Shown here one piece after another: positions 10,686 through 64,000 of a stretch of 64,000 bases of DNA; the first letter of the stretch is position 1; each line of letters begins with the position of its first letter. The stretch covers positions 7,631,001 through 7,695,000 of the forward strand of contig JAZBRI010000011.1 in NCBI GenBank assembly GCA_036874045.1. Direction: 5' to 3'. The translations under genes were made by a program, and so were the position numbers. The notes beneath the pieces were generated by a model, which saw nothing but the letters and a program-made list of their open reading frames with translations, did not search any database and was not told where the DNA came from. Origin of the DNA: Cymodocea nodosa. Its lineage: Eukaryota > Streptophyta > Magnoliopsida > Alismatales > Cymodoceaceae.

Positions 10686-12532
10686 TGTTTAGAATGAAAA
10701 AGTGCATATTATTAACGGTTAAATGATGGTTAATTGCATAATATTTAGCTTATCATATGAGAATTAAGCCATTATGTTATAATTTCACTGTTATACGCTT
10801 TAATTGAAGAATCTGCTTAATTTTGGGGAATTAATGTTAATTTAGTATATTTTTGAACTGTCGGTAAATTACAGGCTGTGAAATTCTTAAGTATCTGAAA
10901 ATGCATCTAAGCATCGGATAGTTATACCTGTAACTCTCCGAAATGTTATTTTATGTTTAAACTGCTACTGACACGTGTCGAGATCTGGTAGATTTACTTA
11001 AGTTATAACTCGTTAAGTTAGCATACCTGTACGCATTGAGTTGCTATATTGAACATTAAGGCAACGTGTTAGGTTAGCGTTATAAACTTAAGTTGTTATT
11101 TTTGCACGTGTTTTATAGTTAAATCAACGAAGGAAGTCGGTTGAGTTATCTGTAACTCCACGGACTATATATTTTCTAATATGCCACTGTAGCGGTTGCA
11201 GGATTAGACAGTTGGAAGGAAAAACCACGTTTACACGTATCACGTAGGAATTCAATCGTGTAGGGAGAAAGAAATCATTACCGTTGATCTGAAGGAAGGA
11301 AATCCAACCGACCATTCAAGCAGAAGTAGTTACTACTGAAGAAATATAAAAGAAAAGAAGAAAAAAAGATGAAGTGTGTGTGATCGATGGACGACCAGTG
11401 TATACAAAGGAGGAGCATCGAGCTTTCTGCAGACAGTATCAGCGATTCTCCGAAGTATCACACCAACCATCATTATCACCACCATAATCACCAATCATCG
11501 GAGGTCTGTGAGGATACTTGCCTGATGTCGGGTCGATTCCGAGCCAAACACAGTGCCTGACAACCACTGTGAGGACTGATCACGTCACGGGAAGGGAAGA
11601 CATTTTCACCAAGCGCCAACTCATATTTCAGGAGATCGTAAAGCTTTTAGCCTTGGCTTCGGGTTGATGCCTGTACGCTGAAGAGGAGATCATCTTGCAA
11701 TTCTGGACTCGTGATTCTATAGGGAGAGGAGACAGAATTGTAAGTGGTTAAATTTTCAGTGGTGTAATCGCGTTGCAAGTAGTGTCGGAAGTATTTACTA
11801 TCAAGTGAGATTACTTTACATTTCACCTTTCGCCCATTTCATCAAGAACAAAAAATACCAAAAACAATTTATCTTTGTTTGTATGTTATATTATTTGTGT
11901 TTTATTGTGACTAATGTTATTTGTATCAGTTTTATGATTGTTTTATGTTAGTCTTAATTTTACAGTTTACTGAAATTGGTTCGTACAAAAAAACTTAAAG
12001 ATTTTAATGGTTACTATTTGAATCATCTGAATGTTAGTATTGCTTAATGATAAATCCAATGTTAACTAGCATTAAAAAGCTTAATTGATGTTATTTACAA
12101 TCTGTGGAATCGCCCAATGGTTGGCCGAATTCTTCTGTAAATAGCAGTATTATAAAGAAGAGACAGGCTCGTGGAGTTAACTTAAGTCCACGAGGATAGT
12201 CCGTTGAGTTAGCCATAACTCAACGAACTAAGTTCGTTGAGTTAACTGTAACTCAACGGAGTGCTTATTGAATATAAATTTGAATTGTTCACAATCAAAC
12301 ATTTCTTAAATTCATCAGCAATTCCCTGTGGGATCGACCTGTACTTGCACATAGATACAATAGACACTGTGCACTTGCAGTTAAAGTACAAATTGGAATT
12401 AATATCTAAATTGTATTAAAGGTTGTTTGTTTACTTCTAAAAGAAAGAATAGGCATAAAGATAAATTAACTAAGTAAAAATAGAAGTAACAAATCCAAGT
12501 TTTTCTAGTGTAGTGCTGGGAAAACACGAACA
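10686..12532 (+). repeat. Athila C1 5' LTR
   Basis: Starts TGTTTAGAATG and ends ACACGAACA, 1847 bp. It contains a block at about 11005-11110 shared with Copia A LTRs. Near the end come three consecutive inverted repeats (12170-12192, 12200-12226, 12233-12260) and the U5 phrase GGGATCGACCTGTACTTGC, typical of Athila/Tat-type LTRs. Confidence 0.93.
12170..12260 (+). repeat. Triple inverted-repeat block in Athila LTR
   Basis: Three adjacent stem-loop-forming units: CGTGGAGTTA/TAAGTCCACG-like, CCGTTGAGTTA/TAACTCAACGA and TTCGTTGAGTTA/TAACTCAACGGA. The block recurs at 20889-20978 and, decayed, at 62149-62240, 63300-63360 and on the minus strand at 8560-8650. Confidence 0.75.
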
Positions 12533-12539: not shown

Positions 12540-12557
12540 TGACGCCGTTGTCGGGGA
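12540..12557 (+). other. Athila C1 primer-binding site (Asp tRNA type)
   Basis: TGACGCCGTTGTCGGGGA matches the Athila/Calypso-type site TGGCGCCGTTGCCGGGGA at 16 of 18 bases. It sits 7 bp after the LTR. This and the gag and pol relatedness put the element in the Athila lineage. Confidence 0.85.
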
Positions 12558-12646
12558 ATTGAATTGAATTGAATTAATATAAGCAACTGTTAGAGCTGTT
12601 TCGTTTTAATAGCTAGAGTTGTGTGTTTTCTTCTGTAATTGAGAAT

Positions 12647-13075
12647 ATGGCATATGCTTATGCTCAAAGATTTCTGAAACCTTTAATTAGCATATGTGAA
12701 TTTTGCAATTCTGAAGGACACGACATTTCTGATTGTTTGAAATTGAGACATTTACAAATTGTTAGATCCCATGAACAACAAATGAATTATCCTCAATATA
12801 ATAGAGCCGAGTATGAGAATCCTATAGTTTACCCAACTGACAGTCAGTATAGAATGTGTAATATGATGAGAGACACTGAAGTTTGGGATAGCTATGACAG
12901 ACTGGAGCATAGTATAGAGCAAAATCTGGACAAACTGGAATACTTTATGTGTCAACAACAAGAAGTCAACCGGTTAAACTATAAGGAGGCATATTCAAAA
13001 CCTAAATAGGATATAATTTACGAAACTGAAAAAGCCATAAAGAGAATTGATCAAAAATTGAATGCAATGAAAATA
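12647..13075 (+). pseudogene. Athila C1 ORF1 start: detached gag CCHC-knuckle part
   Basis: This short ORF opens the internal region with no capsid in front of it. Near its start it has a CX2CX4HX4C knuckle (CEFCNSEGHDISDC), followed by a polar region with predicted helices. The same start, about 115 bp after the LTR end, occurs in G (32629), C5 (about 63668) and C0. In ordinary Athila elements such a knuckle follows the capsid domain in one gag; here the capsid lies at 15087. About two breaks. The ORF runs into an integrase part because the middle of pol is missing. Confidence 0.75.
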
Positions 13076-13138
13076 CAAGTTTTGCAACAGGACAATGAAA
13101 ATTATAATGTTATAATCCTGCACAACTTGCAAAATATA

Positions 13139-13965
13139 CAACAAACAATTCCTACAAAAACTAATGATAACAAAGTGGTAATACAATTTATAAGAACAAA
13201 TATATTTGCCAGATTTGGAATACCTAAAGCTATTATCAGTGATAGAGGAACTCATTTCTGTAATAGAAGTTTTGAAGCCTTAATGAAGAAATATGGAGTA
13301 AACCACAAAATTGCAACATCATATCATCCGCAAACAAGTGGACAAGTAGAAAGTGTAAACAAACAAATTAAATTAATCTTGGAAAAAGTAGTAAATCCTA
13401 CTAGAACAGATTGGGCTAATAGATTGATAGATGCACTTTGAGCTTATAGAACTGCTTATAAAACGAGCTTAGGTATGTCACCTTTAAGGCTAGTATATGG
13501 AAAAAGTTGTCATTTACCTGTTGAAATAGAACATAAAGCTTATTAGGCATTAAAAACTCTAAACACTAATTTAAATCAAGCTGCTGAAAATAGGAAAATG
13601 CAACTAATTGAATTAGAAGAATTTAGAAATGAAGCTTATTTGAAGACTGTAAGAGAAAAAGAGAAAATTAAATTCTAGCATGATAGAAAAATTATTCCTA
13701 AAAGCTTTGAAATAGGACAAGAAGTATATCTTTATATGGCTAGACTCCATAACCATCTAGGAAAATTAAGATTTAGATGGGAGGACCTTACATAGTTCGG
13801 AATGTTTATCCTTATGGAGCTATTGAAATTGAAAATCCTAAAAATTAGAATATATTTAAAGTAAATGGACAAAGACTTAAACCTATTCTGAAAACACCAA
13901 AAAACTCCTTTGGAATTATAGAAGAAGTCAGAGTAGATGATTGCTCGAGCTCTACTTAGTAAGAA
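13139..13965 (+). pseudogene. Athila C1 integrase part
   Basis: C-terminal two thirds of a Gypsy integrase. It has the core with ISDRGTHFCNRSFE near 13235-13275 and TSYHPQTSGQVE near 13317-13350, then the WANRLIDAL...YRTAYKT region and a C-terminal tail. The same DNA in G is at 36465-37260, about 93-95% alike by eye. Protease, RT and RNase H are absent. Several breaks. Confidence 0.85.
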
Positions 13966-15086: not shown

Positions 15087-16273
15087 ATGGCTGCTCCAGT
15101 AGAAAAACCATTAGGAGAGATTCTGTATCCTGAATTAATTGATGAACCTTCATGTATTCGATTGCCAAACTTTGAGGGAGATAGGTTTGAACTGAAATCT
15201 AATTATATTAGTCAATTGCCACATTTTCATGGATTAGAAAAAGAGGATGCCTATTATTTCCTTAGAGAATTTAACGAAGTTTGTCAAATGATGAGAATGC
15301 CGAACATGAGTATAGATGCTATTAAACTTAGATATATCCCTTTTGCTTTAAAAGATACAGCTAAGAGATGGTTATATACTCTATCGCTTGGTTCAATTTC
15401 TATATGGACTGAATTTTGCTCTGTTTTTCTGGAAAAATACTATCCAACACATCAAACGATTAAAAAGAAGAAAGAAATATTAATGCGTAGCCAAAACCAG
15501 GGTGAATCATTCTGGAAATATTTTGAAAGATTTAAAGATTTACTGACTCAATGTCCACATCATGCAATGAGTAAAGCACAATTAATAGGCATAATTTCTG
15601 AAGGCATAGATGTTTCAACGAAATCTTTATTAAAATCTACTTGTCAAAATGGATTTTTAAAATTATGTAGTGAAGAAGCATAGGCATATTTAGAAAATTT
15701 TGCAAAAAGAACTACACAGTGGGAAAATTCGGTTGAAGCTATTGCAGATAAAAGATTATTGCCAAGAGGAATGCATGAAATAGATTCCAATACTATGCTT
15801 GAGGTGAAATTAAATGAATTAACAAAGGAAATAGAAGAGTTATCATTAAATCAAAAGCTAGCAGAAAAGAATACAAACATAAATGACTTAGATATTATTT
15901 ATGCTAGAAACCAGAGAGATAACTTGGGAAATTCTTATAATCCTAATTGGAGAAATCACCCGAATTTATCTTGGAGAAACAACAATTTCCAGGGAGGAGA
16001 AAATATAAATGAGAAGAACATAAGTTATGAAGTATTAATTGAACAAGGAGCTAGAATATAGAAATTAGAAAAGATAATCCAACAACTAAACAATCGTCTA
16101 GAATTTATATTTGGAAATGCTGCAAATCAAAATCAGAATAGAAATATATCACTTAGACAAAAGGAACCAATGGAAGTTAGACCTACTGGAGGATTGCCAA
16201 TACAAGCTAAACCTAATCCTGTCAATAGAACGGTTAATGAAATTGATACCTCTTCTGGGAGGGCAGCTGAATG
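15087..16273 (+). pseudogene. Athila-like gag capsid part lying downstream of pol (C1)
   Basis: Starts at an ATG with MAAPVEKPLGEI-type sequence. The first 200 codons match the Athila/retrotransposon gag capsid domain: RLPNFEGDRFELKSNYI, then HFHGLEKEDAYYFLREF, then RYIPFALKDTAKRWL, then WTEFCSVFLEKYYP and GESFWKYFERFKDL. A coiled-coil stretch (KLNELTKEIEELSLNQK) and an Asn-rich tail follow. There is no CCHC knuckle here; that motif is in ORF1 at the other end. The ORF lies between integrase and the F-box ORF, the reverse of the normal order. About three breaks. The G copy is at 46436-46962 and 56487-57063. Confidence 0.85.
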
Positions 16274-16462
16274 AAGCAGCATATCTGAAGCAACTATCTG
16301 TATGTGTATATGTTTTATTTTAAGTTAATAGTATCGTAGAGTTAATTTTTAACTCAACGAACTTAGTCCGTTGAGTTATACCTTAACTCCACGAGGGTGT
16401 ACAGTAGTTATGTTAATTTTTGTCTCTGCTAAATTTTTGTTTTTATTTTACAGAATCGACAA
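16274..16462 (+). other. C1 spacer between capsid and F-box ORFs, possible intron with hairpins
   Basis: Contains the inverted-repeat words (16335-16395) and ends in a T-rich tract with TTTTATTTTACAG (AG at 16452-16453), a good plant 3' splice site 9 bp before the F-box ATG. A GTATGT near 16303 could be the donor. In G a GTAAGT at 57098 and ACAG at 57271 hold the same places. Confidence 0.45.
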
Positions 16463-17602
16463 ATGGAATTAATGCAATTACCGTTGGATGCACAAAGGGA
16501 AATACTAATTAACTTGTCAGCTAAAGATCTGTGCAGGCTATGTTGTGTATCAAAGGAAATTAAAGACTGTATTAAAGAAAAATATTTTTAAGGACTACAA
16601 GCTGCAAAAATGATTAAGATTAGAGATGGATTCATATGGAGGTCATTTAATCGTAGTTCAAATACCCATGAATATTTGGCTATGGAAGAAACTACTGGAA
16701 TTCCACCCAATGCATTAGAAGGAATGAGTCATATTATGGGGATAGATGAAGGATTAATCATATACAAGACGAGACCAAGGTATGCAAGTTTATCATTACC
16801 TGATATTTTGATATGAAATCTTATAACAGGAGAAGAATGTAATATAGGAAGACCTAATATATTTGAAGCACCAACTGAAAATTGTGGGTCAGCTTTAATA
16901 TTTTCTGATAAAAATTCTACAATTCCTGAAAAATTATATTATTGGAGACCTACAGGAAATTGGGGTGAAGATTTACGCTTAAGTGTGTATAATTTTTTGA
17001 ACAGATCTTGGAATGAAAACATTATGATATATTTAGGACAGAAATCATTAATTAACCAAACACATGTCATACTTGATGGATATATCTATTTAGTCACAGA
17101 GATATCAATAGCATATAGATCTGATTTATACATAGTGAGCATAGAAAGTTATGATGATTATATACAAATTTTACCTGTACCGAGTGAAATAGCTAAACCA
17201 CCATCTGCGGAATTTAATGAAATTCAAATAGGAATGTGGTATAATGAAGAAGATGATCCTACTTTATGTCTGATAAGATGGTGGGATGAACTGATGAAAT
17301 TTCAAATATGGATTATGGAAGACATGAATGAATGGAAGTGGGAAGAGGAGTATATTGAAATAGATGTAGAAATAGAAACTGCTACATTACCTTGGAACCA
17401 AAAAGGATCCCTTTCTGCATTACATATCATTAATGATAATACACTTGTATTTGGAATTTATAATATATTGCATGTTTACAAATTAAAAAGGAACAAGAAC
17501 TGCATTAAAACAGAATTAATAGCAAGAAGAACTATGCCTAAAAAGTTTGCTTGGACTGATACATTTATTCCATTTGTTTCTACTTTTCAATCATGTTCTT
17601 AA
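16463..17602 (+). pseudogene. F-box / F-box-associated-like ORF carried by Athila C1
   Basis: Encodes an F-box type protein of about 380 residues. The N-terminal 45 residues have the F-box pattern LPLDAQREIL then NLSAKDLCRLCCVSKE. The C-terminal half is rich in aromatic residues, with LIRWWDE and FQIWIMEDMNEWKWE, which recall F-box-associated domains (WMKE-type words). Known F-box proteins bind SKP1 and bring substrates to SCF ubiquitin ligases; the target here is unknown. It lies between the gag capsid and the 3' LTR, a position shared with G. No RT-like or membrane motif is seen. A few breaks; most changes against the G copy are conservative. Confidence 0.8.
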
Positions 17603-19392: not shown

Positions 19393-21252
19393 TGTTTAGA
19401 ATGAAAAAGTGCATATTATTAACGGTTAAATGATGGTTAATTGCATAATATTTAGCTTATCATAAGAGAATTAAGCTATTATGTTATAATTGCACTATTA
19501 TATGCTTTAATTGAAGAATTTGCTTAATTTTGGGGAATTAATGTTAATTTAGTATATTTATGAACTGTCGATAAATTGCTGGTTGTGAAATTCTTAAGTA
19601 TCCAAAAATGCATCTGAGCATCGGATAGTTATACCTGTAACTCTCCAAAATGTTATTTTATGTTTAAACTGCTACTGACACGTGTCGAGATCTGGTAGAT
19701 TTACTTAAGTTATAACTCGTTAAGTTAGCATAACTATACGCGTTGAGTTGCTATATTTAACACTAAGGCAACGCGTTAGGTTAGCGTTATAAACTTAAGT
19801 TGTTATTTTTGCACGTGTTTTATAGTTAAATCAATGAAGGAAGTCTGTTGAGTTATCTGTAACTCCATGGACTATATATTTTCTAATATGCCACTATAGC
19901 GGTTGCAGGAACAGACTGTTGGAAGGAAAAACCACGTTTGCACGTATCACGCAGGAATTCAATCGCATAGGGAGAAAGAAATCATCGCCGTTGATTTGAA
20001 GGAAGGAAATCCAACTGACCATTCAAGTAGAAGTAGTTACTACTGAAGAAATATAAAAGAAAAGAAGAAAAAAAGATGAAGTGTGTGTGATCGATGGACG
20101 GCCAATGTATACAGAGGAGGAGCACTGAGCTTTCTGTAGACAGTATCGGTGATTCTTTGAAGTATCACACCAACCATCGTTATCACCACCATAATCACCA
20201 ATCATCGGAGGTCTGTGAGGATACTTGCCTGATGTCGGGTCGATTCTAAGCCAAATATAGTGCCTGACAACCACTGTGAGGAGTGATCACATCGCGGGAA
20301 GGGAAGACATTTTCACCAAGCGCCGACTCATATTTCAGGAGATTGTAAAGCTTTTTGCCTTGGCTTCGGGTTGATGCCTGTATGCTGAAGAGGAGATCAT
20401 CTTGCAATTCTGGACTCGTGATTCTATAGGGAGAGGAGACAAAATTGTAAGTGGTTTAATTTTCAGTGGTGTAATCGCGTTGCAAGTAGTGTCGGAAGTA
20501 TTTACTGTCAAGTGAGATTACTTTACATTTCACCCTTCGCCCATTTCATCAAAAACAAAAAATACCAAAAACAATTTATCTTTGTTTGTATGTTGTATTT
20601 GAGTGTTGTATTATTTGTGTTTTATTGTGACTAATGTTATCTGTATTAGTTTTATGATTGTTTTATGTTAGTTTTAATTTTACAGTTTACTAAAATTGGT
20701 TCGTACAAAAAAACTTAAAGATTTTAATGGTTACTGTTTGAATCATCTGAATGTTAGTATTGCTTAATGATAAATCCAATGTTAACTAGCATTAAAAAGC
20801 TTAATTGATGTTATTTACAATCTGTGGAATCGCCCAATGGTTGGTCGAATTCTTCTGTAAATAGCAGTATTATAAAGAAGAGACATGCTCGTGGAGTTAA
20901 CTTAAGTCCACGAGGATAGTCCGTTGAGTTAGCCATAACTCAACGAACTTAGTCCGTTGAGTTAATTGTAACTCACCGGAGTGCTTATTGAATTTAAATT
21001 TGAATTGCTCACAATCAAACATTTCTTAAATTCGTCAGCAATTCCCTGTGAGATCGACCTGTACTTGCACACTGATACAATAGACACTATGCACTTATAG
21101 TTAAAGTACAAATTGGAATTAATATCTAAATTGTATTAAATGTTGTTTGTTTACTTCTAAAAGAAGGAATAGGCACAAAGATAAATTAACTAAGTAAAAA
21201 TAGAAGTAACAAATCCAAGTTTTTCTAGTGTAGTGCTGGGAAAACACGAACA
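19393..21252 (+). repeat. Athila C1 3' LTR
   Basis: 1860 bp with the same ends as the left LTR. About 21 differences in the first 415 aligned bases and fewer after that. Followed by the GACAT duplication at 21253-21257. Confidence 0.93.
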
Positions 21253-21257
21253 GACAT
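21253..21257 (+). repeat. Target site duplication, right copy, of Athila C1
   Basis: GACAT, identical to 10681-10685. Copia B gag resumes here. Confidence 0.9.
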
Positions 21258-32522: not shown

Positions 32523-32529
32523 AGTTTTC

Positions 32530-32547: not shown

Positions 32548-32628
32548 TTGAGAAGCTAAGCAACTATGAGTGCTGTTTTGTTTTAATAGCAGGAGGAGTG
32601 TTGTGTGTTTTATTCTATAATTGAGAAT

Positions 32629-33640
32629 ATGACATATGCTTATGCTCAAAGATTTTTAAAACCTATAGTTAGCATATGTGAATTCTGTAATTTGGAAGGT
32701 CACGACATCTCTGATTGTTTGGAACTGAGACAGTTGCAGATGGTTAAATCACATGAACAACAAATGAATTATATTCAATATAATAGAGCTGAGTATGAGA
32801 ATCCTATGATTTACCCAACTAATGGTTAGTTTATAATGTGTAATATGTTGAGAGATAAGGAAGTTTGAGATAGGTATGACAGACTGAAGCGTAGCTTAGA
32901 GCAAAACATGGACAAACTGGAACAATACATGTGGTAGTAACAATAAGTCAACCAATTAAACCATAAGGAAGAATATTTAAAACCTAAAATTGATATCATT
33001 TACGAAACTAAAAAAACCATAATGAAAATCGATTAAAAATTGAATGCAATGAGATAAGATGATCTGGAAAGAAAATTAAAAGCATTGGATGAATTTACAA
33101 TGAAATTACAAGTTATGTAATAGGAAAACACAAATGAAAACTTTAATGTTACAGAAGTGCATAATTTGCAAGACATTAGACAAAAGAAAATACTAATGCA
33201 ATAGAGTTTAAAGAATGCAATTTAAAACTAAAAACAGTTGAAGATCATAATCACAAAAATGAAATACAAGAACATCAAGAAAGTAATGAAAATTTGGAAG
33301 ATGTATGTATAGCATTAAGATCTAAAACTAATATACCACCAAGAATTCAAAAAGAAAGTAAGATTAAGGTGGATAAGAACAAAATTCAAAATGATTATGA
33401 AAATGTAATATCTGAAAACGTAGAGATCAATGAAGAAAAATCTGAATCTGAAAATGAGACTAAAAATGATCAAACAAATGAAATGAAAGAAAAAGAATCT
33501 TGTAAATCACAATCATTAGCACCCTATCCTGAAAGATTACAACAAACATTTCCCGAAAATAAGAAAAAAGTAGAGAAATTTTTGAAAAAGTACAAATTAA
33601 CATTCCTTTGTTAGAGTTATTACAGAAAATGCCACCTTGT
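32629..33640 (+). pseudogene. G ORF1 start: CCHC-knuckle gag part
   Basis: Begins at ATG 32629 and carries the knuckle CEFCNLEGHDISDC near 32674-32715. It continues through the Gln/Asn-rich region to the CIALRSKTNIPP phrase, a Glu-rich acidic region and SQSLAPYPERLQQ, then the protease. No capsid domain precedes it. It is one of four copies with this start in the window. About ten breaks. Confidence 0.8.
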
Positions 33641-34440
33641 GCTAAATTTCTTAAGGATTGATGTACGAAGAAAAGAGAGTGAAAAGTTTTAAGGAAAGTC
33701 TTTTTAGCTGAGCAAAGTAGTTCCCTATTTCTGCCACAAATTCCTAAAAAGTTATATGATCTTGGAATCCCTATTATATCATGCACCATAGGAAATACCA
33801 TTCTAGAAAGAACCTTAATAGACCTAGGTGTATGTATAAATGTTATGTCGAGTGATATATTTGCATCTTTAGGATTAGAAGGCTTAATCTCTACTAGGAC
33901 TGTTATTCAATTAGCTGAGAGAAGTATAAGATACCCTAAAGGAAAAATAGAGGATGCCTTAATTAAAATCAAAAATTTCACATATCCTATTGATCTTGTG
34001 ATTTTGGATTCCCAACAAATTAAGCATCAAAATCGTGATACATCTTTAATTTTGGGAAGACCATTCTTAGGAACATCAGGGGGTGTTATAAATTGTAAAA
34101 CTGGAGTAATGAAGTTAGCATATGGTAATGAGGATACTCAATTAAACATTTTCAAACTAGAAAAGTTTGAGGAGTTAGAAATGTGCTTACATACTATAGA
34201 ATTTTTAGAGGATGAAGGAGATATGCTAGATGATGTGATTCAAGAAGAACTAAATAGACAACTAAACTCTAAAACTTTAGAAGTAAGTGAAAGCATAAAT
34301 GTAGAAGGAGATCAAGAAGATATTTACAAAAAAGATGAAAATGTTCAATTAGAAGCTCTAGCTTCTGATGGTCAACATCTAGATTTAAAACCTTTACCTC
34401 CTGAATTAACCTATATATTTTTGGAAGAAAAATGAATATG
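33641..34440 (+). pseudogene. G protease region
   Basis: Retropepsin-like Athila protease with TLIDLGV active-site region near 33820, SLILGRPFLGTSGGVI near 34040-34090, and an acidic C-terminal linker (EVSESINVEGDQEDIYKK) nearly identical to C3. A few breaks. Confidence 0.85.
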
Positions 34441-35935
34441 TCCAATCATTATTGCTTCAGATTTAAAAGAGGATCAAATTGCTAAATTAAAAGATGTAGT
34501 AAAAACTTATAAAGAAGCAACAAGATGGACTATGACTGATATAAAAGGGTTAAGTGTAACTTTATGTTGTCACCACATATATTTAGAAGAGAATGCTAAA
34601 CCAGTTAGAATTCCTAAGAGGAGATTAAATCCAAACCTTAAAGAAGTAGTTAGGAAAGAAATAGTGAAATGGTTAGATAATGACATAATTTATCTGATTT
34701 CTGATAGCTCATGGGTTAGTCCAATCCATGTAGTTCCCAAGAAATCAAGATTAACAGTTATTAGGAATGAAAGTTAGGACTTGATACCTACTAGAATTAA
34801 ATCAGGTTGGAGAGTGTGTATAGACTATAGAAAGCTGAATGTTGTGACTAGGAAAGATCATTTTCCCTTACCTTTTATAGATCAAATGCTAGAGAAATTA
34901 GTAGGGCAAAAATATTTTTGTTTCCTAGACAGGTATTCAGGATATAACCAAGTTCTAATAGCATTAGAGGATCAAGAGAAAATAATTTTCACCTGTCCTA
35001 ATGAAACTTATGCTTTTAAGAGAATATCATTCGGATTATGCAATGCACCAGCCACCTTTCAATGGTGTATGCAGGGCATATTTACTGGAATGACTAAAGA
35101 TTTTTTAGAAATATTTATGGATGATTTTACTATTTATGGAACTTCATATGAAGTGTGTTTAAACAATTTAGACCAAGTATAAAAATGCTGTGTGGAAAAA
35201 AGTCTAGTTCTAAATTGGGAAAAATGTCACTTTATGGTTAAACAAGGAATAGTCTTGGGACATGTTTCAAAGAAAGGGTTGGAAGTAGACAAAACTAAAA
35301 TAGAAGTAATTTCTAATCTACTAGAACCAAAATCAATAAAAGATATTAGATCATTTCTAGGATATGCTGGATTTTATAGAAGATTTATTAAAGATTTTAG
35401 CAAAATAGCTAGACCTTTAACTGATTTATTAAAAGATGTCCCATTCAACTTTAATAGAAATTGCAAAGAAGCATTTTTCAAGCTTAAAACTAGCTTAATT
35501 TCAAATCCTATAATACAAGCACTTGATTGGAGCCATCCATTTGAATTAATGTGCGATGCATCTTATTTTGCTGTAGGAGTAGTGTTGGGACAGAAGATAG
35601 AAAAATCTCCTAGAGTGATTCATTATGCAAGCAAAACTTTAAATGATGCTCAAGTTAATTATACAACTACTGAAAAAGAGCTGTTAGCTGTTGTGTTTGC
35701 CTTAGAAAAGTTTAGATCATATCTGATTGGAGCTAAAGTGATAGTATACACATATCATTCAACTTTGAAACACCTAATAGTAAAGAAAGAAACTAAACCT
35801 AGATTGATCCGATAGATATTATTATTACAAGAATTTGATCTAGAAATTAAAGATAAAAAATGTTGTGAGAATGTAGTAGCAGATCATTTATCAAGATTAC
35901 AAATAGAAAAATCAAATATTGAAATTAAGGATTAT
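34441..35935 (+). pseudogene. G reverse transcriptase and RNase H
   Basis: Gypsy-type RT: SSWVSPIHVVPKKS, WRVCIDYRKLN, FPLPFIDQMLEKL, SGYNQ, and the catalytic FMDD at 35114-35125. The connection and RNase H follow, with [22 protein letters not shown], then [15 protein letters not shown] and [18 protein letters not shown]. The arrangement RT-RNase H-integrase is the Gypsy order. It is the most complete pol in the window, with about half a dozen breaks. Confidence 0.93.
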
Positions 35936-37260
35936 TTTCCTGATGAACAATTAATGACCATGAACACAATGCCTTGGTATGCAGACATAGTTAATTACTT
36001 AGTTACTGGTTTAACACCTAAGAATTGGAATAGACAGGATAAGAAATTGTTCTTTTCAAGAGTAAAATATTACTATTGGGAAGACCCATACTTATTTAAG
36101 AAATGTTTTGATTTGGTTTTAAGGAGGTGTGTTCTAGAAACTGAATATCAAAACATATTGTCATTCTACCATGACCAAGCATGTAGAGGGTATTTTGGTT
36201 CAGGAAAAACTACTGCCAAAATTCTACAATGTGGATTTTATTGGCCAACACTATTCAAAGATGCTCATAAATACTACTTAAGTTGTTTAAGATGTCAACA
36301 AATAGGAAGAATATCAAAGAGGATTATGATGCCTCTGAATTCTATTGTTGAGGTTGAAATCTTTGATGTGTGGGGAATAGATTTTATGGGTCAATTTCCT
36401 ATGTCTAATCAATTTAATTATATATTATTGGGGGTGGATTATGTATCTAAATGGATAGAAGCTATTCCTACAAAAACCAATGACAACAAAGTGGTAATAC
36501 ATTTTATAAGAACTAATATAATTGCCAGATTTGGAATACCTAAAGCAATTATCAGTGATAGAGGAACTCATTTCTGTAATAGAAGTTTTGAAGCCTTAAT
36601 GAAGAAATATGGAGTAAATCACAAAATTACAACATCATATCATCTGCAAACAAGTAGACAAGTAGAAAGTGCAAACAAACAAATTAAGTTAATCTTAGAA
36701 AAAGTAGTAAATCCTACTAGGAAAGATTGGGCTAATAGATTAATAGATGCACTTTGGGCTTATAGAACTGCTTATAAAACAAGCTTAGGTATGTCACCTT
36801 TTAGGCTAGTATATGGAAAAAGTTGTCATTTACTAGTTGAAATTGAATATAAAGCTTATTGGACATTAAAAATTTTGAATACTAATTTAAATCAAGTTGT
36901 TGAAAATTGAAAAATGCAATTGATTGAACTAAAAGAATTTAGGAATGAAGCTTATTCGAAGATTGTAAGAGAAAATGAAGTTCTTGCATGACAAGAAAAT
37001 TATTCCAAAAACCTTTGAAATAGGACAAGAAGTATATCTTTACATGACTAGACTCCATAATCGTCTAGGAAAATTAAGATCTAGATGGGCAGGACCTTAT
37101 ATAATTTGAAATATTTATTCCTATGGAGCTATTGAAATTGAAAATCCTAAAAATCAGAATATATTTAAAGTAAATGGACAAAGCCTTAGACCTATTTTGA
37201 AAATACTAACAAGTTCCTTTGGAATTATAGAAGTAAGTGTAGAGGACTACTCGAGGTGTA
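35936..37260 (+). pseudogene. G integrase
   Basis: The zinc-binding N-terminus has FYHDQACRGYFG and CLRCQQIG, followed by GFYWPTLFKDAH. The catalytic core shows WGIDFMGQFP, ISDRGTHFCNRSFE and the Glu of the DDE triad in the VESANKQIK region. The C-terminal part ends near 37260 with the KVNGQSLRPI-type tail of Athila integrases. A few breaks. Confidence 0.92.
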
Positions 37261-41785: not shown

Positions 41786-42468
41786 CAAATAAATGAATAG
41801 GAGTTTATATTGTCTCCTAAGTTAATTTTTGAAGTTTTGGGATTAAAGAATGAAGGTGTTGTTGTTACAAACAGATTTGACATGATAAGACAACTGGAAT
41901 GGAACATTCAGTCTTTATTAAAAATTCCAGATGTATATTTTGAAATGAGATTAATGGAAAATCTGAATGTAGAGGTAAGGTTTATTGCAAATATATTGCA
42001 TGCAAATTTATTTTAGAGAGTTGGACACAATATGGAAGTCAGCAGAAGTTGTTTATATGCAACTTATAGCTTGCTGAATAGAATTCAAATCAATTGGTTT
42101 GATGTTTTCACTTCTCAACTACAGCATATGAGTTCAAAGTTATTTTATGGTGATGCTGTATGTTGACTCATTGCAAGCCAATTAAATTTATCCGACTGGC
42201 CCTCTCAAAATAAAGGCATGAGAGCATTTAGTGTCAAAGATTTGCAAAAATTCCAGGCCATGCATAAACCTCAACGTCAACAACAACAACAACCTGATAC
42301 AGACCATATACAACAACAACAACAACAAAGTTATTCAGTTCAAGCAGAACAGCAAACCCAGCTACCTCCTGACTTAGATACAGTGCTTAACGACACCAGA
42401 AATGATATTAGGCATCTAGGAGATAAAATATGTAATGCTATAAGTGATATACTTAGGAGGGGTCGCTA
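41786..42468 (+). pseudogene. Copia A2 ORF2, C-terminal domain
   Basis: Holds only the last third of ORF2: SPKLIFEVLGLKNEG, FDMIRQLEWNIQS, RFIANILHANLF, then a Gln-rich run from CAA repeats (about 42265-42360) and NDTRNDIRHLGDKICNAISDILRR at the end in parts. Same domain as A3 (51440-52090). A few breaks. Confidence 0.75.
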
Positions 42469-44296: not shown

Positions 44297-45365
44297 GAAC
44301 AGATTCTACTAAAGAGCAAGAGACTCTTCAACAAATTTTGGAAAGAATTCAAGAGAGAAGAGTGGAGAGTTCTGCCGGCTCACCACCATAGACAAAAGTA
44401 GAAGCAAAAAGGTTGGAATCTCCGAATCATTTCCAACTAAATCAAGTTCAGCACATGGAGGAGGAAATTCAAGAACAAACCCCTCTAGAGTAACAAATTC
44501 AAATTCCTAACCCGACTGAAGCAACAGTTTTGAATGAAGTACACTTTTGGAGTCAAGAAGCATATAATAAATATCAAGAGATTAGGGGTTATGATATTAT
44601 TTACAGTAGACTAGTAAACTGGGATGGTATGTAGGAAATAAAGAATTGTTTGAGTTCCAAGGTCTACTACAATTTATTTCTCAATAGAAAAGGCGTGCAG
44701 TATACAAAAATTTAGTGCCCTGTTTCTATGCAAATTTAAGAGAAGAAGAAGGACAATTAATTTCCAACGTGGAACAAGCTGATGTACAGATAATACCAAA
44801 ACTTCTCCACAACATTTTAGGATTGACAAATGAAGGGAAAGAAATTTTAGAAAGCACAATTGTCGTTGAGTAGGCAGAACAGGAAATCAAGGATAGTTTA
44901 GCTACTATCAATCCTAGTGTGCCATTATTAAATAGACTAAAGCACTTAAATGTTAAAGCACACATGGTAGCTAACATTTTGATTAAAAATGTCTACCAAC
45001 GACAAGGCCATGATATTGAACTAAGTCAATTTGTCAAATGGGCCACATATGCAGTTGTGAACATAATCCAAATTAACTGGTGTCAAGTCTTCCTGTCCAT
45101 GATAAAATTTGCAAAGAAGAAATTATTTTATGGAGATTTGATACCTATATTGATGGTGGACTGTATTGACTTCACGAAATGGGCATCTAAAAGGATAAGA
45201 TCAAGAACCATTTCAGTAAAGGAATATAGAAACTACAATGCTACAACTACTGAAGTACCTGTACCTTCTAGAGACATTATTGGAGCTGTTGAATGGATAA
45301 ATCAATTAGAGCAACAACTAGAAAAACTCTAAAAGGAAGTAGATGAACTTAGGAAAAAAGATTAA
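44297..45365 (+). pseudogene. ORF-X of G, C-terminal part
   Basis: Coding-like DNA on the right side of Copia A2. It matches Copia A ORF2 in several stretches. HFWSQEAYNKYQEI with IYSRLVNW parallels FRFEEALQKYNNL with LHARLIKF of A3; VANILIKNVYQRQGHDIELS parallels IANILHANLFLRVGHNMEVS; IQINWCQVF parallels IQINWFDVF; KLFYGD parallels KLFYGH. The spacing of these words recalls the Pfam family of putative plant transposon proteins found in plant LTR elements (from memory, not searched). It ends in a coiled coil (INQLEQQLEKL). About ten breaks over both parts. Confidence 0.7.
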
Positions 45366-46435: not shown

Positions 46436-46962
46436 ATGATTGCTCTAGTAGAAAAACCATTAGGGGAAATTATGTATCTTGAATTAGTTGATGAACCTTC
46501 ATATATTTGATTACCAAACTTTGAGGGAGAAAGGTTTGAACTGAAATCTAATTATATTAGTCAATTGCCTCATTTTCATGGATTAGAAAGAGAGGATGCC
46601 TATTATTTCCTTAGAGAATTTAACGAAGTTTGTTAAATGATGAAAATGACGAACATGAGTATTGATGTTATTAAACTTAGATATATCCCTTTTGCTTTAA
46701 AAGACACAACTAAGAGATAGTTATATACTTTGTTGCCTAATTCAATTTCTACATGGATTCAATTTTGCTCTATTTTTCTGGAAAAATATTATCCAACACA
46801 TCAAACAATTAAAAAGAAAAAGGAAATATTAATGTGTAGCCAAAAATAGGGAGAATCATTTTGGAAATATTTTGAAAGATTTACTAACTCAATATCTACA
46901 TCATGCAATGAGTAAAGCATAATTAATAGGTATAATTTATGAAGGCATAGATGTTTCAACGA
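46436..46962 (+). pseudogene. G capsid (gag N-terminal) downstream of pol, first part
   Basis: Matches C1 15087-15620: KPLGEI, LPNFEGERFELKSNYI, HFHGLEREDAYYFLREF, KYYPTHQTIKKKKEI words are all visible in parts. It is interrupted by Copia A3, with a short stretch of capsid lost at the junction. About half a dozen breaks in the capsid as a whole. Confidence 0.82.
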
Positions 46963-47029
46963 ATAACTAGTACCCCTACGGTGTCATATAAATTTGGCTT
47001 AGGATTTGATTATCCTGAATATCTTGAAT

Positions 47030-56486: not shown

Positions 56487-57063
56487 TTTGCAAAAAGAAC
56501 TGCATAGTAGGAAAACTCGACTGAAGCTATTATAGATAAAAGAATATTGCCAATGGGAATGCATGAAATAGATTCAAGCACTATGCTTGAAGTTAAATTA
56601 ACTGAGTTAACAAACAAAATAGAAGAGTTATCATTAAATCAAAAGCTAACAGAAAAGAATGCAAACGTTAATGACTTAGATATTATTTATGCTAGAAACT
56701 AGAAAGATATCTTTGAAAATTCTCATAACTCTAATTAGAGAAATCACCCGAATCTATCTTGGAGGAACGACAATTTTAAGGGAGGAGGAAATATAAATGA
56801 CAAAAATATAAGTTATGAAGCATTAATTGAACAAAGATCTAGAATAGAGAAGTTAGAAAAGATAATTCAACAATTAAATAATCGTCTAGATCTTGTATTT
56901 GGAAATGTTGCCATTCAAAATCAAAATATGAATAGAAATATACCCCTTAGAAGGAATCAATAGAAGTTAGACCTACAAGAGGATTGCCAATGCAAGCAGT
57001 ACCTAACCCTATCAACAGAACTGTTAACGAAATTGATACCTCCTATGGGAGGGAAGCTGAATG
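56487..57063 (+). pseudogene. G capsid (gag) downstream of pol, second part
   Basis: Resumes right after Copia A3 with FAKRTA-like sequence, matching C1 15698-16273: a coiled-coil stretch (KIEELSLNQKLTEKN), NHPNLSWRN and the Asn-rich tail ending in the NEIDTSYGREAE region. No CCHC knuckle is present. Confidence 0.8.
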
Positions 57064-57282
57064 AAGTAGTATAACGAAAGCAACTATGTATAATATAGTA
57101 AGTATAAAAAAATAAAATAAAAAAATATAAGTTTAATTATAGTTAGTAATATCGTAGAGTTATTACTTAACTCAACGAACTTGGTCCGTTGAGTTATGAC
57201 CTAACTCCACGAGGATAAGTAAGTAGCTATGTTAATTTTGTCTCTGTTAAATTTTTGTTTATGTTATACAGAATTACAATAG
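57064..57282 (+). other. G spacer between capsid and F-box ORFs, possible intron with hairpins
   Basis: GTAAGT at 57098-57103 and TTATACAG ending at 57271 would bound an intron of about 174 bp, with a T-rich tract before the AG and the F-box ATG 11 bp after it. Inside lie the AACTCAACGAAC/GTCCGTTGAGTTA words (57155-57215). Confidence 0.45.
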
Positions 57283-58422
57283 ATGGAATTGATGAAATTA
57301 CCACTGGATGCACTGAGGGAAGTACTGAGTAACCTGTCAGCTAAAGATCTATGTAGATTGTGTTGTTTATCAAAGGAAATTAAAGATTGTGTTAGAGAAA
57401 AATATTTTCATGGACTACAAGCTACAAAAATGACTAAGATTAGGGATGGATTTTTATGGAAGTCATTTAATCGTAGTTTAATCAGCTATGAATATCTGAA
57501 TATGGAAGAAACTACTGGAATTCCACCCAATACATTAGAAGGAATAGATCATATTATGGGGATAGACGAAGGATTAATTATTTATAGAACCAAACCAAGG
57601 TATGCAATTCTATTACCTGATATTTTGATTAGAAATCCTATCATAAGGGAAGAATGGAATATAGGAAGACCTAATAGATTTGAAGTACCAACTAAAAATT
57701 GTGGGTCAGCCTTAACATTTTCTAATAAAAATTTGACCATTCCTGAAAAATTGTATTACTGCAAACTAACTGGAAATTGGGATGAAAATTTATGTTTAAG
57801 TGTGTATGATTTTCTGAATAGATCTTGGACTGAAAATACTATGATATATCTAGGACAAAAAGCATTAATTAACAACATACATGTCATACTTGATGGATAT
57901 ATATATCTAGTCACAGATATATCAATTGCATTTAGATCTAATTTATACATGGTAAGCATAGACAGTTATGATGATGACTTTATAGAAATATTGCCTATAC
58001 CTAGTGATATAGCTAAACCACTGTTTGTAGAATATGATAAAATTCAATTAGGAATGTGGTATAATGAATATGATGATCCTACTTTATGTCTGATAAGATG
58101 GTGGGATGAATGGAGGAAATTTCAAATATGGATTATGAAAGACCTAAATGAATGGAAGTGGGAAGGGGAATATATTGAAATAGATGTAGAAATAGAAACA
58201 ACTACATTATCTTGGAATAGAAAAGGATCCCTTTCTGCATTTCATTTCATTAATGGTAATACACTCATATTTAGTATTGATAACATACTGTAAATTTACA
58301 AGTTAAAAAGGAAAATGGACTGCATTGAAATAGAATTAATAGCAAGAAGAATTATGCCTAAAAAGTTTGCTTGGACTAACATGTTTATTCCATTTGTTAC
58401 TACTTTTCAATCATGTTCTTAA
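57283..58422 (+). pseudogene. F-box / F-box-associated-like ORF carried by G
   Basis: Encodes a protein of about 380 residues, open over most of its length with about one break. F-box at residues 5-45: LPLDALREVLSNLSAKDL then RLCCLSKEIK. The middle has GIDEGLIIYRTKPRY and CGSALTF. The C-terminal half has LDGYIYLVTDISIAF, LGMWYNEYDDPTLCLIRWW, and FQIWIMKDLNEWKWE at about residues 279-293, which recalls F-box-associated domains. By family it would link SKP1-CUL1 ligases to a substrate. The position matches C1: after capsid, before the non-coding module and LTR. About 80-85% alike to C1 in protein, with many conservative changes. A captured host gene is the likeliest origin. Confidence 0.83.
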
Positions 58423-60243: not shown

Positions 60244-62563
60244 TGTTTAGAATGAAAAAGTGCATAATGTTAATGATTAAATGATGGTTAATTGCATAAT
60301 ATTTAGTTTATCATATGAGAATTAAGCCATTATGTTATAATTGCACTATTATATGCTTTAATGAAGGAATATGCATAATTTCAAGGAATTAATGTTAATT
60401 AAGTACATTTCTAAACTATTGGTAAGTTGCAAGTTTTTAATTCTTAAGTATCCAAATTTTTTGTTATTTCGGAGAGTTATATTGCATGTACCAGACAGTT
60501 ATGTTTTAAGTGCTTAAAGAATATTTTATTATTTTCTGAAGTACACATGTTGAAATATCAATGCATGACTTAAGTGGATTTTTGGTAAGTTATCTAGTAA
60601 CTATCCGAAATGCATCTGAGTATCGGATAGTTAGGTTTGTAAGTATTTGAAAAATCTTTTTATCATAAAATTTATTAAGGACACGTGTTGTTATCTGAAA
60701 ACCTGATTTAAGTGTGGTTTTATAGTATTAAGCATGATCTATTTTATTTGCATATATTTATATCATGTACAGGTACACAGTAACAACTTGTTGAGTTAGT
60801 GTTCTTTTTGTTGAAAGATCATGTGCCAACTCGTTGAGTTACAGGTTTAAAGGTATAAAAAAGTCATGTGAGAACTCGTTGAGTTATTGAGTAAAAACTT
60901 TAAGTTGTATATCGAACTCGTTAAGTAGAATTATGCATGTATTGAATTTAAATGCTTTATTATGTCATGTGAACTACACATGTATAACTCGTTAAGTTAG
61001 CATAACTATACACGTTGAGTTAATTGAATATACACTAAGGTAACACATTGTATTAGCAAGCTTATAAGTTATTTATTTATTGCACGTGCTTTATAGTTAA
61101 ATCAACGAAGTAAGTCCGTTGAGTTATTTGTACTTCCACGAACCATTTATTTTCTAATATGCCATTGTAGTAGTTGCAGAAATAAGAAATTTGAAAGAAA
61201 ACCACGATCGCACGTTTCACATAGAAATTCACTTGTGGAATGAAGAAGAAATCACCATCATTGATATGAATGAAGAAAATCCAACTGATCAATTAAGTAG
61301 AAGTAGTTACTACAGAAAGAAATATAAAAGAAGAGGAAAAAGACAAAGAAAGTGTGTGTGTAGAGGTGGAGGACCGTGCTAACTGTAGGTAGCGTTGGAA
61401 GTTCCCTAAAGCTCCACACCACCACCAAAATCACTAACCATCAGAGGTTTGTGAGGATACTTTTCTGATGTTGGGTCGATTCCAAGCCAAACATGGTGAC
61501 TAGCAACCATTGTGAGGAGTGATCACGTCGTGGGAAGGGAAGCCATTTTCACCAAGCACTGACTCATCTCTAGAGATCATAAAGCTTCTAGCCTTGGTTT
61601 CGGGTTGATGCCAGTATGTTGAAGAGGAGATCATCTTACAATTTTGGATTTGTGATTCTATAGGGAGAGGAGGCAAGATTGTAAGTGATTAAGTTTTCAG
61701 TGGTGTAATCGCATCGCATGTAGTGACAAAAGTTTTTATTGTCAATAGAGATTTTTACATTTCACCTTTCATTCATCTTTAGGAACATATCAAAACAAAA
61801 ATACCAAAAACAACAAATTATCTATGTTTAGATTTAGTATTAAAGTATTGTACTGTTTGTTTTGTATCGTGATTAATGCTATCATTGTCAGTATTGTGAA
61901 TGCTTTATGTTTGTTTGATTCAGAAAATAGAAAATAGTGTTATTGTTTACTGAAATTGATTTGTTCCAGATACTTAAAGATTTTAATGGTTATTGTTTAA
62001 AATATCTGAATGTTAGTATTTTTTAATGATAAATCTAATATTAACTAACATTCAAGAGCTTAATTGATGTTATTTACAATATGTGGAACTGCCTAATGGT
62101 TGGCCGAATTCCTCTGTAAATAGCAATATTTAACTAGAAAGATAGGCTCGTGGAGTTAACTTAAGTCCATGAAATCAGTCCGTTGAGTTAGCCATAACTC
62201 AATGAACTAAGTTCGTTGTGTTAACTGTAACTCAATGGAGTGCTTACTAAACACATATAAACCCCAATATAAAAATTGGAATAGTACACAATTTTGACTC
62301 AATCTTTGTGGGATCGACCTGTACTTGCACACAAATACAATATACACTGTGCACTTGAAGTTAAAACACAAATTGGAAGTAATATCTAATTTGTGTGAAA
62401 GGTTGTTTGTTTACTTCTAAAAGTAATTATTTATATAAGCATAAAAGCAAATTAAACAAGCATTTCTAGCACCGTTTAACAAATATAAGTTCACAAATCC
62501 AATACAAGTCTTCTAGTGTCGTTGTATATACAAGTTTAAGAATTAACTTAACAACCCCAAACA
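60244..62563 (+). repeat. Right LTR of G
   Basis: 2320 bp, from TGTTTAGAATG to CCCCAAACA. It shares start, order and end with the C1 LTRs at about 75-80% and its last 265 bp with the left remnant of G at about 95%. Contains hairpin words at 62149-62240 and a 450-bp U3 stretch resembling Copia A LTRs. Confidence 0.88.
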
Positions 62564-64000
62564 CTCCACAACACCACCACCAATCACCAACCATTGAAGG
62601 TCTATGAGGACACTTTCTAGATGTCGGGTTGATTTCGAACCAAACACGGTGATTGACAACCATTGGAAGGAGTGATCGTGTCGTAGGAAGGGAAACCATT
62701 TTTACCAAGCATCGAATCATCTCTTAAGAGATTGTAAAGCTTCTAGCCTTAGTTTCAGGTTGATGCCATTATATTGAAGAGGAGATCAACTTACAAGTCT
62801 CGGTTCACGATTCTATAGGGAGAGGAGGCATGACTATAAGTGATCAAGTTTTTAGAGGTGTAACCGTGTCGCATGTAGAGATGGAAGTTTTTATTGTCGA
62901 TAGAGAATTTTTACATTCACCTTTCGTTTCTCTTCAAGAACATATCAAAACAAGAACAAGACTAAATATTTGTTTTTATAGTTAGCATTTATGTATTGTA
63001 TTGTTTGTTTTGTATCGTGATTAGTGTTATTATTGTTAATTTTGTGAATGTTTCGTGTTTATTTGATTTAGAAAATAGAAAATAGTTTTATTGATTACTA
63101 AAAATGATTCGTACAAAATATCCAAAATCTTAATGGTTACTATTTAAAATATCTGAATGTTAGTATTGATTAATGATACATACTAGATGAACTAACATTA
63201 AAAAGCTTAATTGATGTTATTTACATTTTGTGGAATCACCCAATGGATGGTCGAATTCCTTTGTAAATTGCAAAATTTAATTGGAAATCACTAGTTAGGC
63301 TCATGGAGTTAACTTAAGTCCACGAGGATAGTTCGTTAGGTTAGTAGTAAGTCAATAGAGTGCGTAATTTAACACATATGAAACTCTAGTTGTAAACATC
63401 AAAATAGTATGTAATTTTTACTCAATCTCTATGCGATTGACCTGTACTTGCATACAAATACAATAGACACTATGCACTTGTAGTTAAAAATAAATTAGAT
63501 TTAATATCTAATTTGTGAAAATTGTTTATTTACTTTTAAAAGAAATTAATATATATTTAAAGTAAACAAAATTCTCCCAAACAAGTTTTCTAGTGTTGTT
63601 GCAAGGAACTGTAGTGGTATTTTGTTTTAATAGCATAAGGAGTGTTGTGTATTTTTATCATTGAGAATATAGCATATGCATATGCTCAAAGATTTTTGAA
63701 ACCTTTAGTTAGCATATGTAAATTCTACAATTTGGAAGGTCATGACATTGCTGATTGTTTGAAACTGAGACGATTGCAGATGATTCGATCACATGAATAA
63801 CAAATGCATTATATCCAATACAATAGAACTAAGTACGAGAATCCCATAGTTTACCCAACCAATAGTCAATTTAGAACAAGTGATATGTCGAGAGACAAGA
63901 AAGTTTGGGATGGGTATGACAGACTTGAGCGTAGTTTAGAACAAAACTTAGATAAACTAGAACAATACATGTTATTAGGATCTTATGGCTCACCAGTGGG
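62564..64000 (+). mobile_element. Athila-like copy C5 (LTR 3' half, PBS, ORF1 start), runs off the window
   Basis: 62564-63583 is the second half of an Athila-like LTR (CTCCACAACACCACC on), matching 61400-62563. The PBS-like TAGTGTTGTTGCAAGGA is at 63591-63607, and the knuckle ORF begins near 63668. G ends exactly inside this LTR, so G probably inserted into C5 or its relative. Confidence 0.85.
63668..64000 (+). pseudogene. C5 ORF1 start with CCHC-knuckle region
   Basis: The fourth copy of the short ORF that opens this family's internal region. AYAYAQRFLKPLVSIC, LEGHDIADCLKLR and VYPTNSQF words align with G 32629-33000. The knuckle is recognisable though decayed. It continues past the window edge. 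Several breaks. Confidence 0.75.

What the first reader, a model, noticed from the sequence alone, without database searches (positions are those of the whole stretch)
57283..58422. An F-box protein ORF is standing cargo of this retrotransposon family
Seen: two copies (C1 16463-17602 and G 57283-58422) in the same slot between capsid and 3' LTR, each with an F-box at residues 5-45 and an F-box-associated-like end with IWIMxDxNEWKWE. They are diverged yet largely open, with many conservative changes, while pol in the same elements is more broken. Known: retroelements such as maize Bs1 can capture host genes, and viruses use F-box proteins to redirect SCF ligases. Inference: the element may have used SCF-driven degradation against host silencing or to control its own proteins.
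Basis: partly seen in the sequence, partly recalled or inferred. Interest (0 to 1): 0.92.

Follow-up and report, generated by a model that had tools for sequence, protein, structure and literature searches.

The report
F-box gene carried by plant retrotransposon
A very abundant plant jumping gene carries its own version of a plant protein that normally marks other proteins for destruction, and natural selection kept that gene intact while the jumping gene was active.

Summary
Confirmed and strengthened. Both ORFs are F-box proteins (PF00646 6e-10; F-box-associated TIGR01640 4e-8, below that model's cut-off), in sense between capsid and 3' LTR of an Athila-like Ty3/gypsy element; C1 has LTRs and a GACAT target duplication. 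In the window's own 374.6-Mb genome the 120 scored matches (of 6687 first-look candidates) are all 85-100% identical. Of 20 capsid loci picked without regard to the F-box, 16 have it downstream in sense. G/C1 dN/dS is 0.36 (0 of 2000 neutral simulations as low), like integrase (0.41). Over 71 copies, variants shared by 5+ copies have N/S 1.13, private ones 3.00 (2.87 and 2.72 expected; p=1.6e-4): selected while the family moved, decaying after insertion. A splice-acceptor-like site precedes the ATG in 55 of 71 copies. A divergent element (33-41% aa) also has an F-box gene beside its capsid. Inferred mechanism: an accessory protein, made from spliced mRNA, that plugs into host SKP1/SCF ligases; target unknown, SKP1 binding untested. 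Extra ORFs in gypsy elements, and one F-box gene inside an LTR element, are already in print; conserved F-box cargo was not found.

The parts
57283..58422 (+). F-box ORF, copy G: 379 codons, one stop at 58291-58293
   Evidence: PF00646 6.1e-10; TIGR01640 4.1e-8; translation
16463..17602 (+). F-box ORF, copy C1: 380 codons with stop, two internal stops
   Evidence: 76.6% aa identity to G over the matched part; TIGR01640 2.2e-6 for 16817-17602
16434..16453 (+). Splice-acceptor-like T-rich tract ending CAG, 9 nt before the ATG of C1's F-box ORF (inferred function)
   Evidence: one of 10 such sites on the + strand of the window by a simple rule set after seeing it
57252..57271 (+). Same acceptor-like site, 11 nt before the ATG of G's F-box ORF (inferred function)
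   Evidence: kept in 55 of 71 copies by a looser rule
10686..12532 (+). 5' LTR of element C1
   Evidence: 94.6% identical to the 3' LTR; target duplication GACAT at 10681-10685 and 21253-21257; K2P 0.050
19393..21252 (+). 3' LTR of element C1, preceded by a purine tract
12540..12557 (+). Primer-binding-site-like sequence after C1's 5' LTR
   Evidence: read; likeness to the tRNA-Asp site of Athila is recalled
12617..13009 (+). Zinc-knuckle (nucleocapsid-like) start of C1's first ORF
   Evidence: CX2CX4HX4C read by eye; relatives at four other places in the window; no Pfam zinc-knuckle hit
13100..13591 (+). Integrase remnant of C1 (rest of pol deleted)
   Evidence: 81.7% aa identity to INT 35816-36910
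15087..16274 (+). Capsid ORF of C1, downstream of pol and upstream of the F-box ORF (stops at 15681 and 16060)
   Evidence: PF03732 6.3e-18 on 15003-15683
32602..36910 (+). Zinc-knuckle ORF, protease, RT, RNase H and integrase of element E, which I take to be the 5' part of the element of copy G
   Evidence: Pfam hits; LTR ends of E and G 94% identical
44874..45332 (+). Extra ORF of element E/G, related to the PF20167-like ORF of L071
   Evidence: 28-36% aa matches to the same query; L071 ORF hits PF20167 at 4.2e-4, below cut-off
46436..46963 (+). Capsid piece of element E/G, broken by stops and cut by nested DNA
   Evidence: 76.8% aa identity to C1 capsid
56487..57062 (+). End of the capsid ORF of element E/G
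   Evidence: 74.2% aa identity to C1
60244..62563 (+). 3' LTR of the element of copy G
   Evidence: LTR start and purine tract as in C1; end 94% identical to E's LTR end

Best explanation
The ORF is a resident accessory gene of an Athila-like Ty3/gypsy family. SHOWN by the sequences: it encodes a plant-type F-box / F-box-associated protein in a fixed slot (capsid ORF, about 190-220 nt, F-box ORF, 3' LTR), it is present in most family members examined, and it was under purifying selection while the family was replicating. INFERRED: it is translated from a spliced mRNA whose 3' splice site lies 9-11 nt before its ATG; the protein binds host SKP1 through its F-box, joins an SCF ubiquitin ligase, and uses its C-terminal half to choose a substrate. 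The substrate is most likely a host protein that restricts the element (for instance a silencing factor; I give this step about 0.35) and less likely the element's own proteins.
For: F-box and F-box-associated profile matches. G/C1 dN/dS 0.364, 0 of 2000 simulations as low; F-box domain 0.11. Flank and off-frame controls 0.55-0.93. Integrase 0.41 and zinc-knuckle ORF 0.39 under the same method. Site classes over 71 copies. 120 of 120 scored genomic matches near full length; 34 of 50 loci have capsid end and both 3' flank pieces; 16 of 20 capsid loci have the F-box downstream. Gene order seen in an independent copy. Acceptor-like site. Divergent element with F-box beside capsid.
Against: No expression, splicing, SKP1 or substrate data. 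Only 4 of 71 copies have neither stop nor frameshift. One pair, C1/L082, gives omega 0.73, not below neutral. The C-terminal part is less constrained (0.52). TIGR01640 scores of G and C1 are under its cut-off and FBA_1 is weak. 16 of 71 copies lack the acceptor by my rule. L074 has the F-box before, not after, the capsid. Some copies seem to lack pol, so part of the amplification was in trans.
Confidence: 0.62

Rival explanations
1. Self-control: the F-box protein directs turnover of the element's own capsid or pol proteins, to set particle stoichiometry or limit copy number.
For: It sits next to the capsid ORF in both the main and the divergent subfamily, and capsid lies outside the pol ORF, so its dose must be set some other way (inference).
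Against: Neighbourhood alone; nothing shows that the two proteins meet. Runaway amplification of the family does not look like tight self-limitation.
Confidence: 0.18
2. Passenger: a captured host F-box gene that rode along without a function for the element.
For: LTR elements do capture host genes (PMC7264820), and an F-box 'LTR-gene' is reported in Thlaspi arvense (PMC8764390, passages). Most copies are decayed.
Against: Purifying selection on shared variants and between subfamilies, in-frame indels, and an old divergent subfamily with the same cargo.
Confidence: 0.08
3. The selection signal belongs to a host gene family and the elements re-captured it several times, or the ORF is used by the host.
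For: A divergent F-box at L074 differs in gene order from the main family, as two captures would. No host donor tree could be made.
Against: All element copies share slot, spacing and flanks; the 3 of 4 top F-box places read that were not a host gene were element copies.
Confidence: 0.1
4. The ORF is the family's env-like/other 3' accessory gene that only resembles an F-box protein.
For: It lies in the pol-to-3'-LTR region in which plant elements carry sense extra ORFs (PMC7264820).
Against: F-box at 39 bits against a 20.5 cut-off and an independent F-box-associated match; the element has a separate PF20167-like ORF, the kind seen in sunflower Athila.
Confidence: 0.02

Closest known systems
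Phalaenopsis Ty3/gypsy elements with an AlkB (2-ODD) ORF (PMC9289625; abstract, section 12 and passages seen)
   Same: A gypsy lineage carrying a host-type domain as an extra ORF, conserved over many copies and proposed to act against host control
   Different: AlkB RNA demethylase, not an F-box protein; activity shown in vitro there, nothing measured here. F-box is not named in section 12 and 'F-box' has 0 hits in the main text; its supplementary chart was not seen
F-box 'LTR-gene' of Thlaspi arvense (PMC8764390; passages only)
   Same: An F-box gene reported inside an LTR retrotransposon
   Different: Reported there as a host gene copied by LTR-linked duplication, one named gene; no conserved slot or family-wide cargo in the passages seen
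Athila elements with 3' extra ORFs, e.g. sunflower Athila 14 with Transposase_32 PF20167 (PMC11728184; passages seen)
   Same: Similar pol domains order and a PF20167-like ORF between integrase and 3' LTR
   Different: No F-box ORF mentioned ('F-box' 0 hits); here capsid also lies behind pol
Plant-virus F-box-like silencing suppressors, polerovirus P0 (PMC3588083, section 3.3 read)
   Same: A parasite-encoded F-box protein proposed to recruit SKP1/SCF
   Different: P0 is a short F-box-like protein without a known C-terminal interaction domain; here a full plant-type F-box/FBA protein in an LTR element, target unknown
Retand antisense TRP28 ORFs (PMC11963269; passages seen)
   Same: Extra ORF between pol and 3' LTR kept across most members
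   Different: Antisense and unrelated domain; 'F-box' 0 hits

Membership tests
F-box proteins | F-box domain | tested here: met
   PF00646 39 bits, cut-off 20.5; 36.7 and 34.9 bits in L003 and L029
Plant F-box/FBA (F_box_assoc_1) proteins | F-box-associated C-terminal region | tested here: inconclusive
   TIGR01640 4.1e-8 for G but below cut-off; copies L075 and L076 above it; FBA_1 0.017, below cut-off
F-box proteins | Binds SKP1 / acts in an SCF ligase | not testable with these tools
   Needs an experiment; the fold model was too poor (pLDDT 34.7)
LTR retrotransposon cargo | Lies between LTRs inside a target-site duplication | tested here: met
   C1: LTRs and GACAT on both sides
Conserved extra ORF of a retrotransposon family | Present in most members in one slot and selected | tested here: met
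   16 of 20 capsid loci; site classes
Ty3/gypsy | Integrase after RT-RNase H in pol | tested here: met
   Order PR-RT-RH-INT at 33683-36910 and in L071
Athila lineage | RT phylogeny within Athila | not tested
   No plant RT set was at hand
Athila lineage | PF20167-type 3' ORF (as in PMC11728184) | tested here: inconclusive
   L071 ORF 4.2e-4, 20.7 bits, cut-off 45
Athila lineage | gag (capsid plus zinc knuckle) upstream of pol | tested here: not met
   Capsid lies after integrase in C1 and L071; only the zinc-knuckle part precedes pol
P0-type silencing suppressors | Destabilises AGO proteins | not testable with these tools
   Needs an experiment

The most novel reading that the evidence does not exclude
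A retrotransposon lineage took over a plant F-box gene long ago and made it a dedicated counter-defence SCF adaptor, expressed from a spliced 3' mRNA beside a capsid gene moved behind pol; its amplification means that element copies make up most of the F-box/FBA coding sequence of this plant genome.
Probability: 0.3. Interest if true: 0.9.

Novelty: new variant of a known kind. Interest (0 to 1): 0.76.

Why it matters
Many plant LTR elements carry extra ORFs whose role is unknown. Here the extra protein belongs to a family with well-understood biochemistry, so its role can be tested directly: does it bind SKP1, and what does it remove? If the target is a silencing factor, LTR elements would have their own counterpart of viral P0-type suppressors. 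It also warns that F-box gene counts in such a genome can be dominated by transposon copies (150 of 4220 first-look F-box candidates were scored; of four read, three were element copies).

Tried and rejected
Searches outside the genome found no relative: 811 word-sharing candidates, none at E<=0.001, in the protein set; none in PDB for G, one meaningless hit at E 1.3 for L003; none in viral contigs or plasmids. These collections hold few or no plants, so this says little. The AlphaFold model of G on a two-row alignment had pLDDT 34.7 and was dropped; no fold search was run. My first capsid dN/dS was in a wrong frame; the rerun gave omega 0.40 with 195 of 1000 simulations as low, not significant by itself, and that script then failed at its next line; its remaining controls were rerun. 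Considered: a master copy with an inherited stop at codon 160 (TAG in 14 of 31 copies, TGA in 2), which would mean a truncated cargo was amplified. On the flank tree TAG copies lie beside TGA and TGG copies, and 13 of the 14 have TAC before it, which makes a CTG/CAG (CHG) site, so recurrent deamination is likelier; the label test (2 changes, shuffled mean 1.9) is uninformative because copies without a stop were put in no group, and L007 and L026 were left out of that tree. Six stop-type variants are still shared by 5 or more of 71 copies. Host donor: TIGR01640 (150 of 1635 candidates scored) and PF00646 (150 of 4220) in the own genome are swamped by element copies; of four F-box places read, one (L079) is a host gene that recalls HAWAIIAN SKIRT and is not close to the cargo. 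A count of copies by DNA pattern did not complete.

Full report
OBSERVATION. G (57283-58422) and C1 (16463-17602) align over 379 codons at 86.4% nucleotide identity with two indels, both of 3 nt; the 3' flank has 21 indels in 1704 nt, 16 of them not multiples of 3. G matches Pfam F-box PF00646 at 6.1e-10 (39 bits, cut-off 20.5) and FBA_1 weakly (0.017). TIGR01640 F_box_assoc_1 matches G at 4.1e-8 and, on its own, the C1 ORF 16817-17602 at 2.2e-6, both below the model's cut-off. L003 and L029 give PF00646 36.7 and 34.9 bits and TIGR01640 34.5 and 29.3 bits. 'Pol more broken' holds for C1 but not for the element of G (protease 0 stops in 250 codons, RT-INT 2 in 710).

ANATOMY. C1 is a genuine insertion: LTRs 10686-12532 and 19393-21252 (94.6% identical; K2P 0.050 over 1848 sites), TG...CA ends, GACAT on both sides, a primer-site-like sequence after the 5' LTR and a purine tract before the 3' LTR. 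The F-box ORF lies inside it in sense. G belongs to an element that is cut up by nested, mostly Ty1/copia-type DNA: pol at 32602-36910, capsid at 46436-46963, capsid end and F-box at 56487-58422, 3' LTR from 60244. The pieces are collinear with C1, and the LTR ends at 32254-32527 and 62290-62563 are 94% identical, against 71-87% for their matches to the other LTR ends compared. I take E and G as one element; that is an inference, as about 76 nt of capsid ORF are missing at the junction and no target duplication could be checked. L071, the 9 kb upstream of the F-box of L029, shows protease, RT, RNase H, integrase, a PF20167-like ORF (4.2e-4, below cut-off), capsid (PF03732 2.4e-18) and then the F-box, all on one strand. 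Two other 9-kb stretches (L072, L073) have capsid but no match to the pol pieces of E.

STANDING CARGO. In the own genome (374.6 Mb, 28 contigs) the F-box query gave 120 scored matches of 6687 first-look candidates; the 120 cover nearly the whole query at 85-100% identity, and by my count 20 of the 120 rows show no stop in the matched part. The candidate figure is not a copy number. Of 50 copies held with 1.5-kb flanks, 43 have the capsid end within 500 nt upstream, 44 and 39 the two 3' flank pieces, 34 all three; of 20 more held with 500 nt, 18 show the capsid end. The reverse test does not start from the F-box: from the 150 scored capsid loci (6407 first-look candidates) I took 20 + strand places down the list; 16 of 20 have the F-box in sense at the same distance. 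Of the other four, two (L087, L088) keep about the first 30 nt of the F-box ORF and then run into LTR sequence, one (L086) shows 3' non-coding sequence of the family there, and one (L099) other DNA.

SELECTION. G against C1: dN/dS 0.364 (59 synonymous, 92 nonsynonymous changes); 0 of 2000 simulations that keep the base changes but place them at random were as low (mean 0.74), and C1 has 2 stops where simulations average 8.9. Controls: the 3' flank read as codons gives 0.79, 0.64, 0.80 in three frames, the other two frames of the F-box ORF 0.55 and 0.93. Same method on other genes: integrase 0.41 (4 of 1000 as low), zinc-knuckle ORF 0.39 (49 of 1000) and 0.19 (0 of 1000), capsid end 0.41 (32 of 1000), protease D/E 0.73 (702 of 1000); capsid 0.40 (195 of 1000). 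Other F-box pairs: L003/L029 0.257, G/L003 0.34, L003/L082 0.40, G/L082 0.43, L029/L082 0.44, L029/C1 0.44, each below all 300 simulations; C1/L082 0.73 is not (107 of 300). Site classes over 71 copies (70 of the listed matches, G among them, plus C1; only two-state sites counted): private variants 56 synonymous, 168 nonsynonymous, 13 stop (N/S 3.00; 2.72 expected); in 2-4 copies N/S 2.86 (3.01 expected); in 5 or more 47, 53 and 6 (N/S 1.13; 2.87 expected; Fisher 1.6e-4 against private). Shared variants record the active phase and private ones the time after insertion, so the protein was selected while the family moved. Constraint is strongest in the F-box (first 45 codons omega 0.11; shared variants 7N/14S). 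The copies were picked by protein similarity, which could lower N/S, but the private class looks neutral. Only 4 of 71 copies have neither stop nor frameshift; 19 of 29 indels are multiples of 3.

EXPRESSION (inferred). A T-rich tract ending CAG lies 9 nt (C1) and 11 nt (G) before the ATG. By a simple rule, set after seeing the sites, 10 such sites occur on the + strand of the window, 4 with an ATG within 18 nt, two of these being the F-box copies. By a looser rule it is kept in 55 of 71 copies, and it can be read in most of the 16 capsid-anchored loci. The divergent locus L074 has TTTATTTTATTTTCAG 11 nt before its ATG. Donor-like GTATGT at 14902 is kept in E. No transcript was seen.

DEPTH. 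The best TIGR01640 match in the genome (49.8 bits) is L074, 33-41% identical to G. A capsid 64% identical lies downstream of it (L078:352-825), and a short stretch upstream (L077:3863-3966) matches DNA behind integrase in this family, so it too sits in an element, though with F-box before capsid. A search with it finds six further places at 61-85% identity, most with stops, and then the main family at 33-38% (148 matches listed of 5334 candidates). L080 and L081 are further diverged copies of the main family (69% and 64%). So F-box cargo is old in this lineage, or was taken up twice; a tree with plant F-box genes is needed. No host donor was identified.

MECHANISM AND RIVALS. I favour an SCF adaptor acting for the element, target open. 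Counter-defence is the bolder reading: plant viruses use F-box-like proteins in this way (PMC3588083, section 3.3 read), and the host F-box protein FBW2 targets AGO1 (PMC9035678, abstract read). Self-control of capsid is the main rival. A pure passenger is disfavoured by the selection data.

KNOWN OR NEW. Extra ORFs in plant LTR elements are well known (PMC7264820, parts 1-2 of 3 read; PMC11963269, passages). A screen of 121 angiosperm genomes reported 15 unusual domains in gypsy elements (PMC9289625, section 12 and passages); F-box is not named there, but its supplementary chart was not seen. 'F-box' has 0 hits in the main texts of PMC9289625, PMC11963269, PMC12786077 and PMC11728184. A paper on Thlaspi arvense mentions one F-box 'LTR-gene' (PMC8764390, passages), so an F-box gene within an LTR element is not without precedent. 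My searches (open-access library, listings seen) showed no paper whose title or opening abstract reports conserved F-box cargo. Hence: new variant of a known kind. I lowered interest from 0.78 to 0.76 after the Thlaspi passage. The capsid-behind-pol order may be a second oddity; one narrow search found no precedent.

Noticed in passing
12617-13009 and 15087-16274; 32602-32988; 63648-63971; 8148-7990 (-); L071: gag seems split: a zinc-knuckle ORF starts just after the 5' LTR and leads into pol, while capsid is a separate ORF behind integrase. This gene order is unusual and may need a spliced or separate mRNA.
   Followed up: partly
whole window, e.g. 12202-12258, 16350-16378, 43595-43700, 57168-57196: CGTTGAGTTA occurs 32 times (0.07 expected) and CGTTAAGTTA 17 times (0.12 expected), often as facing pairs, in LTRs and spacers of both gypsy- and copia-type elements. 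Why unrelated elements share it is unexplained.
   Followed up: partly
41801-42466, 51431-52090, 44874-45332: Related extra ORFs behind pol in copia-type elements and, at about 35% identity, between integrase and capsid of the gypsy element.
   Followed up: no
13009-15003; L072; L073: C1 has lost most of pol, and L072 and L073 show none within 9 kb, yet capsid and F-box are kept: perhaps a non-autonomous form that retains these two genes.
   Followed up: no
codon 160 of the F-box ORF in L001-L030 and C1: TAG in 14 and TGA in 2 of 31 copies; 13 of the 14 TAG follow TAC, a CHG context, so it looks like a methylation-deamination hot spot.
   Followed up: partly
L074, L077, L078: Divergent element with an F-box ORF before, not after, a capsid ORF; six further relatives in the genome.
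   Followed up: partly
L079: A host F-box gene with a long open frame; resemblance to HAWAIIAN SKIRT is recalled, not tested.
   Followed up: no
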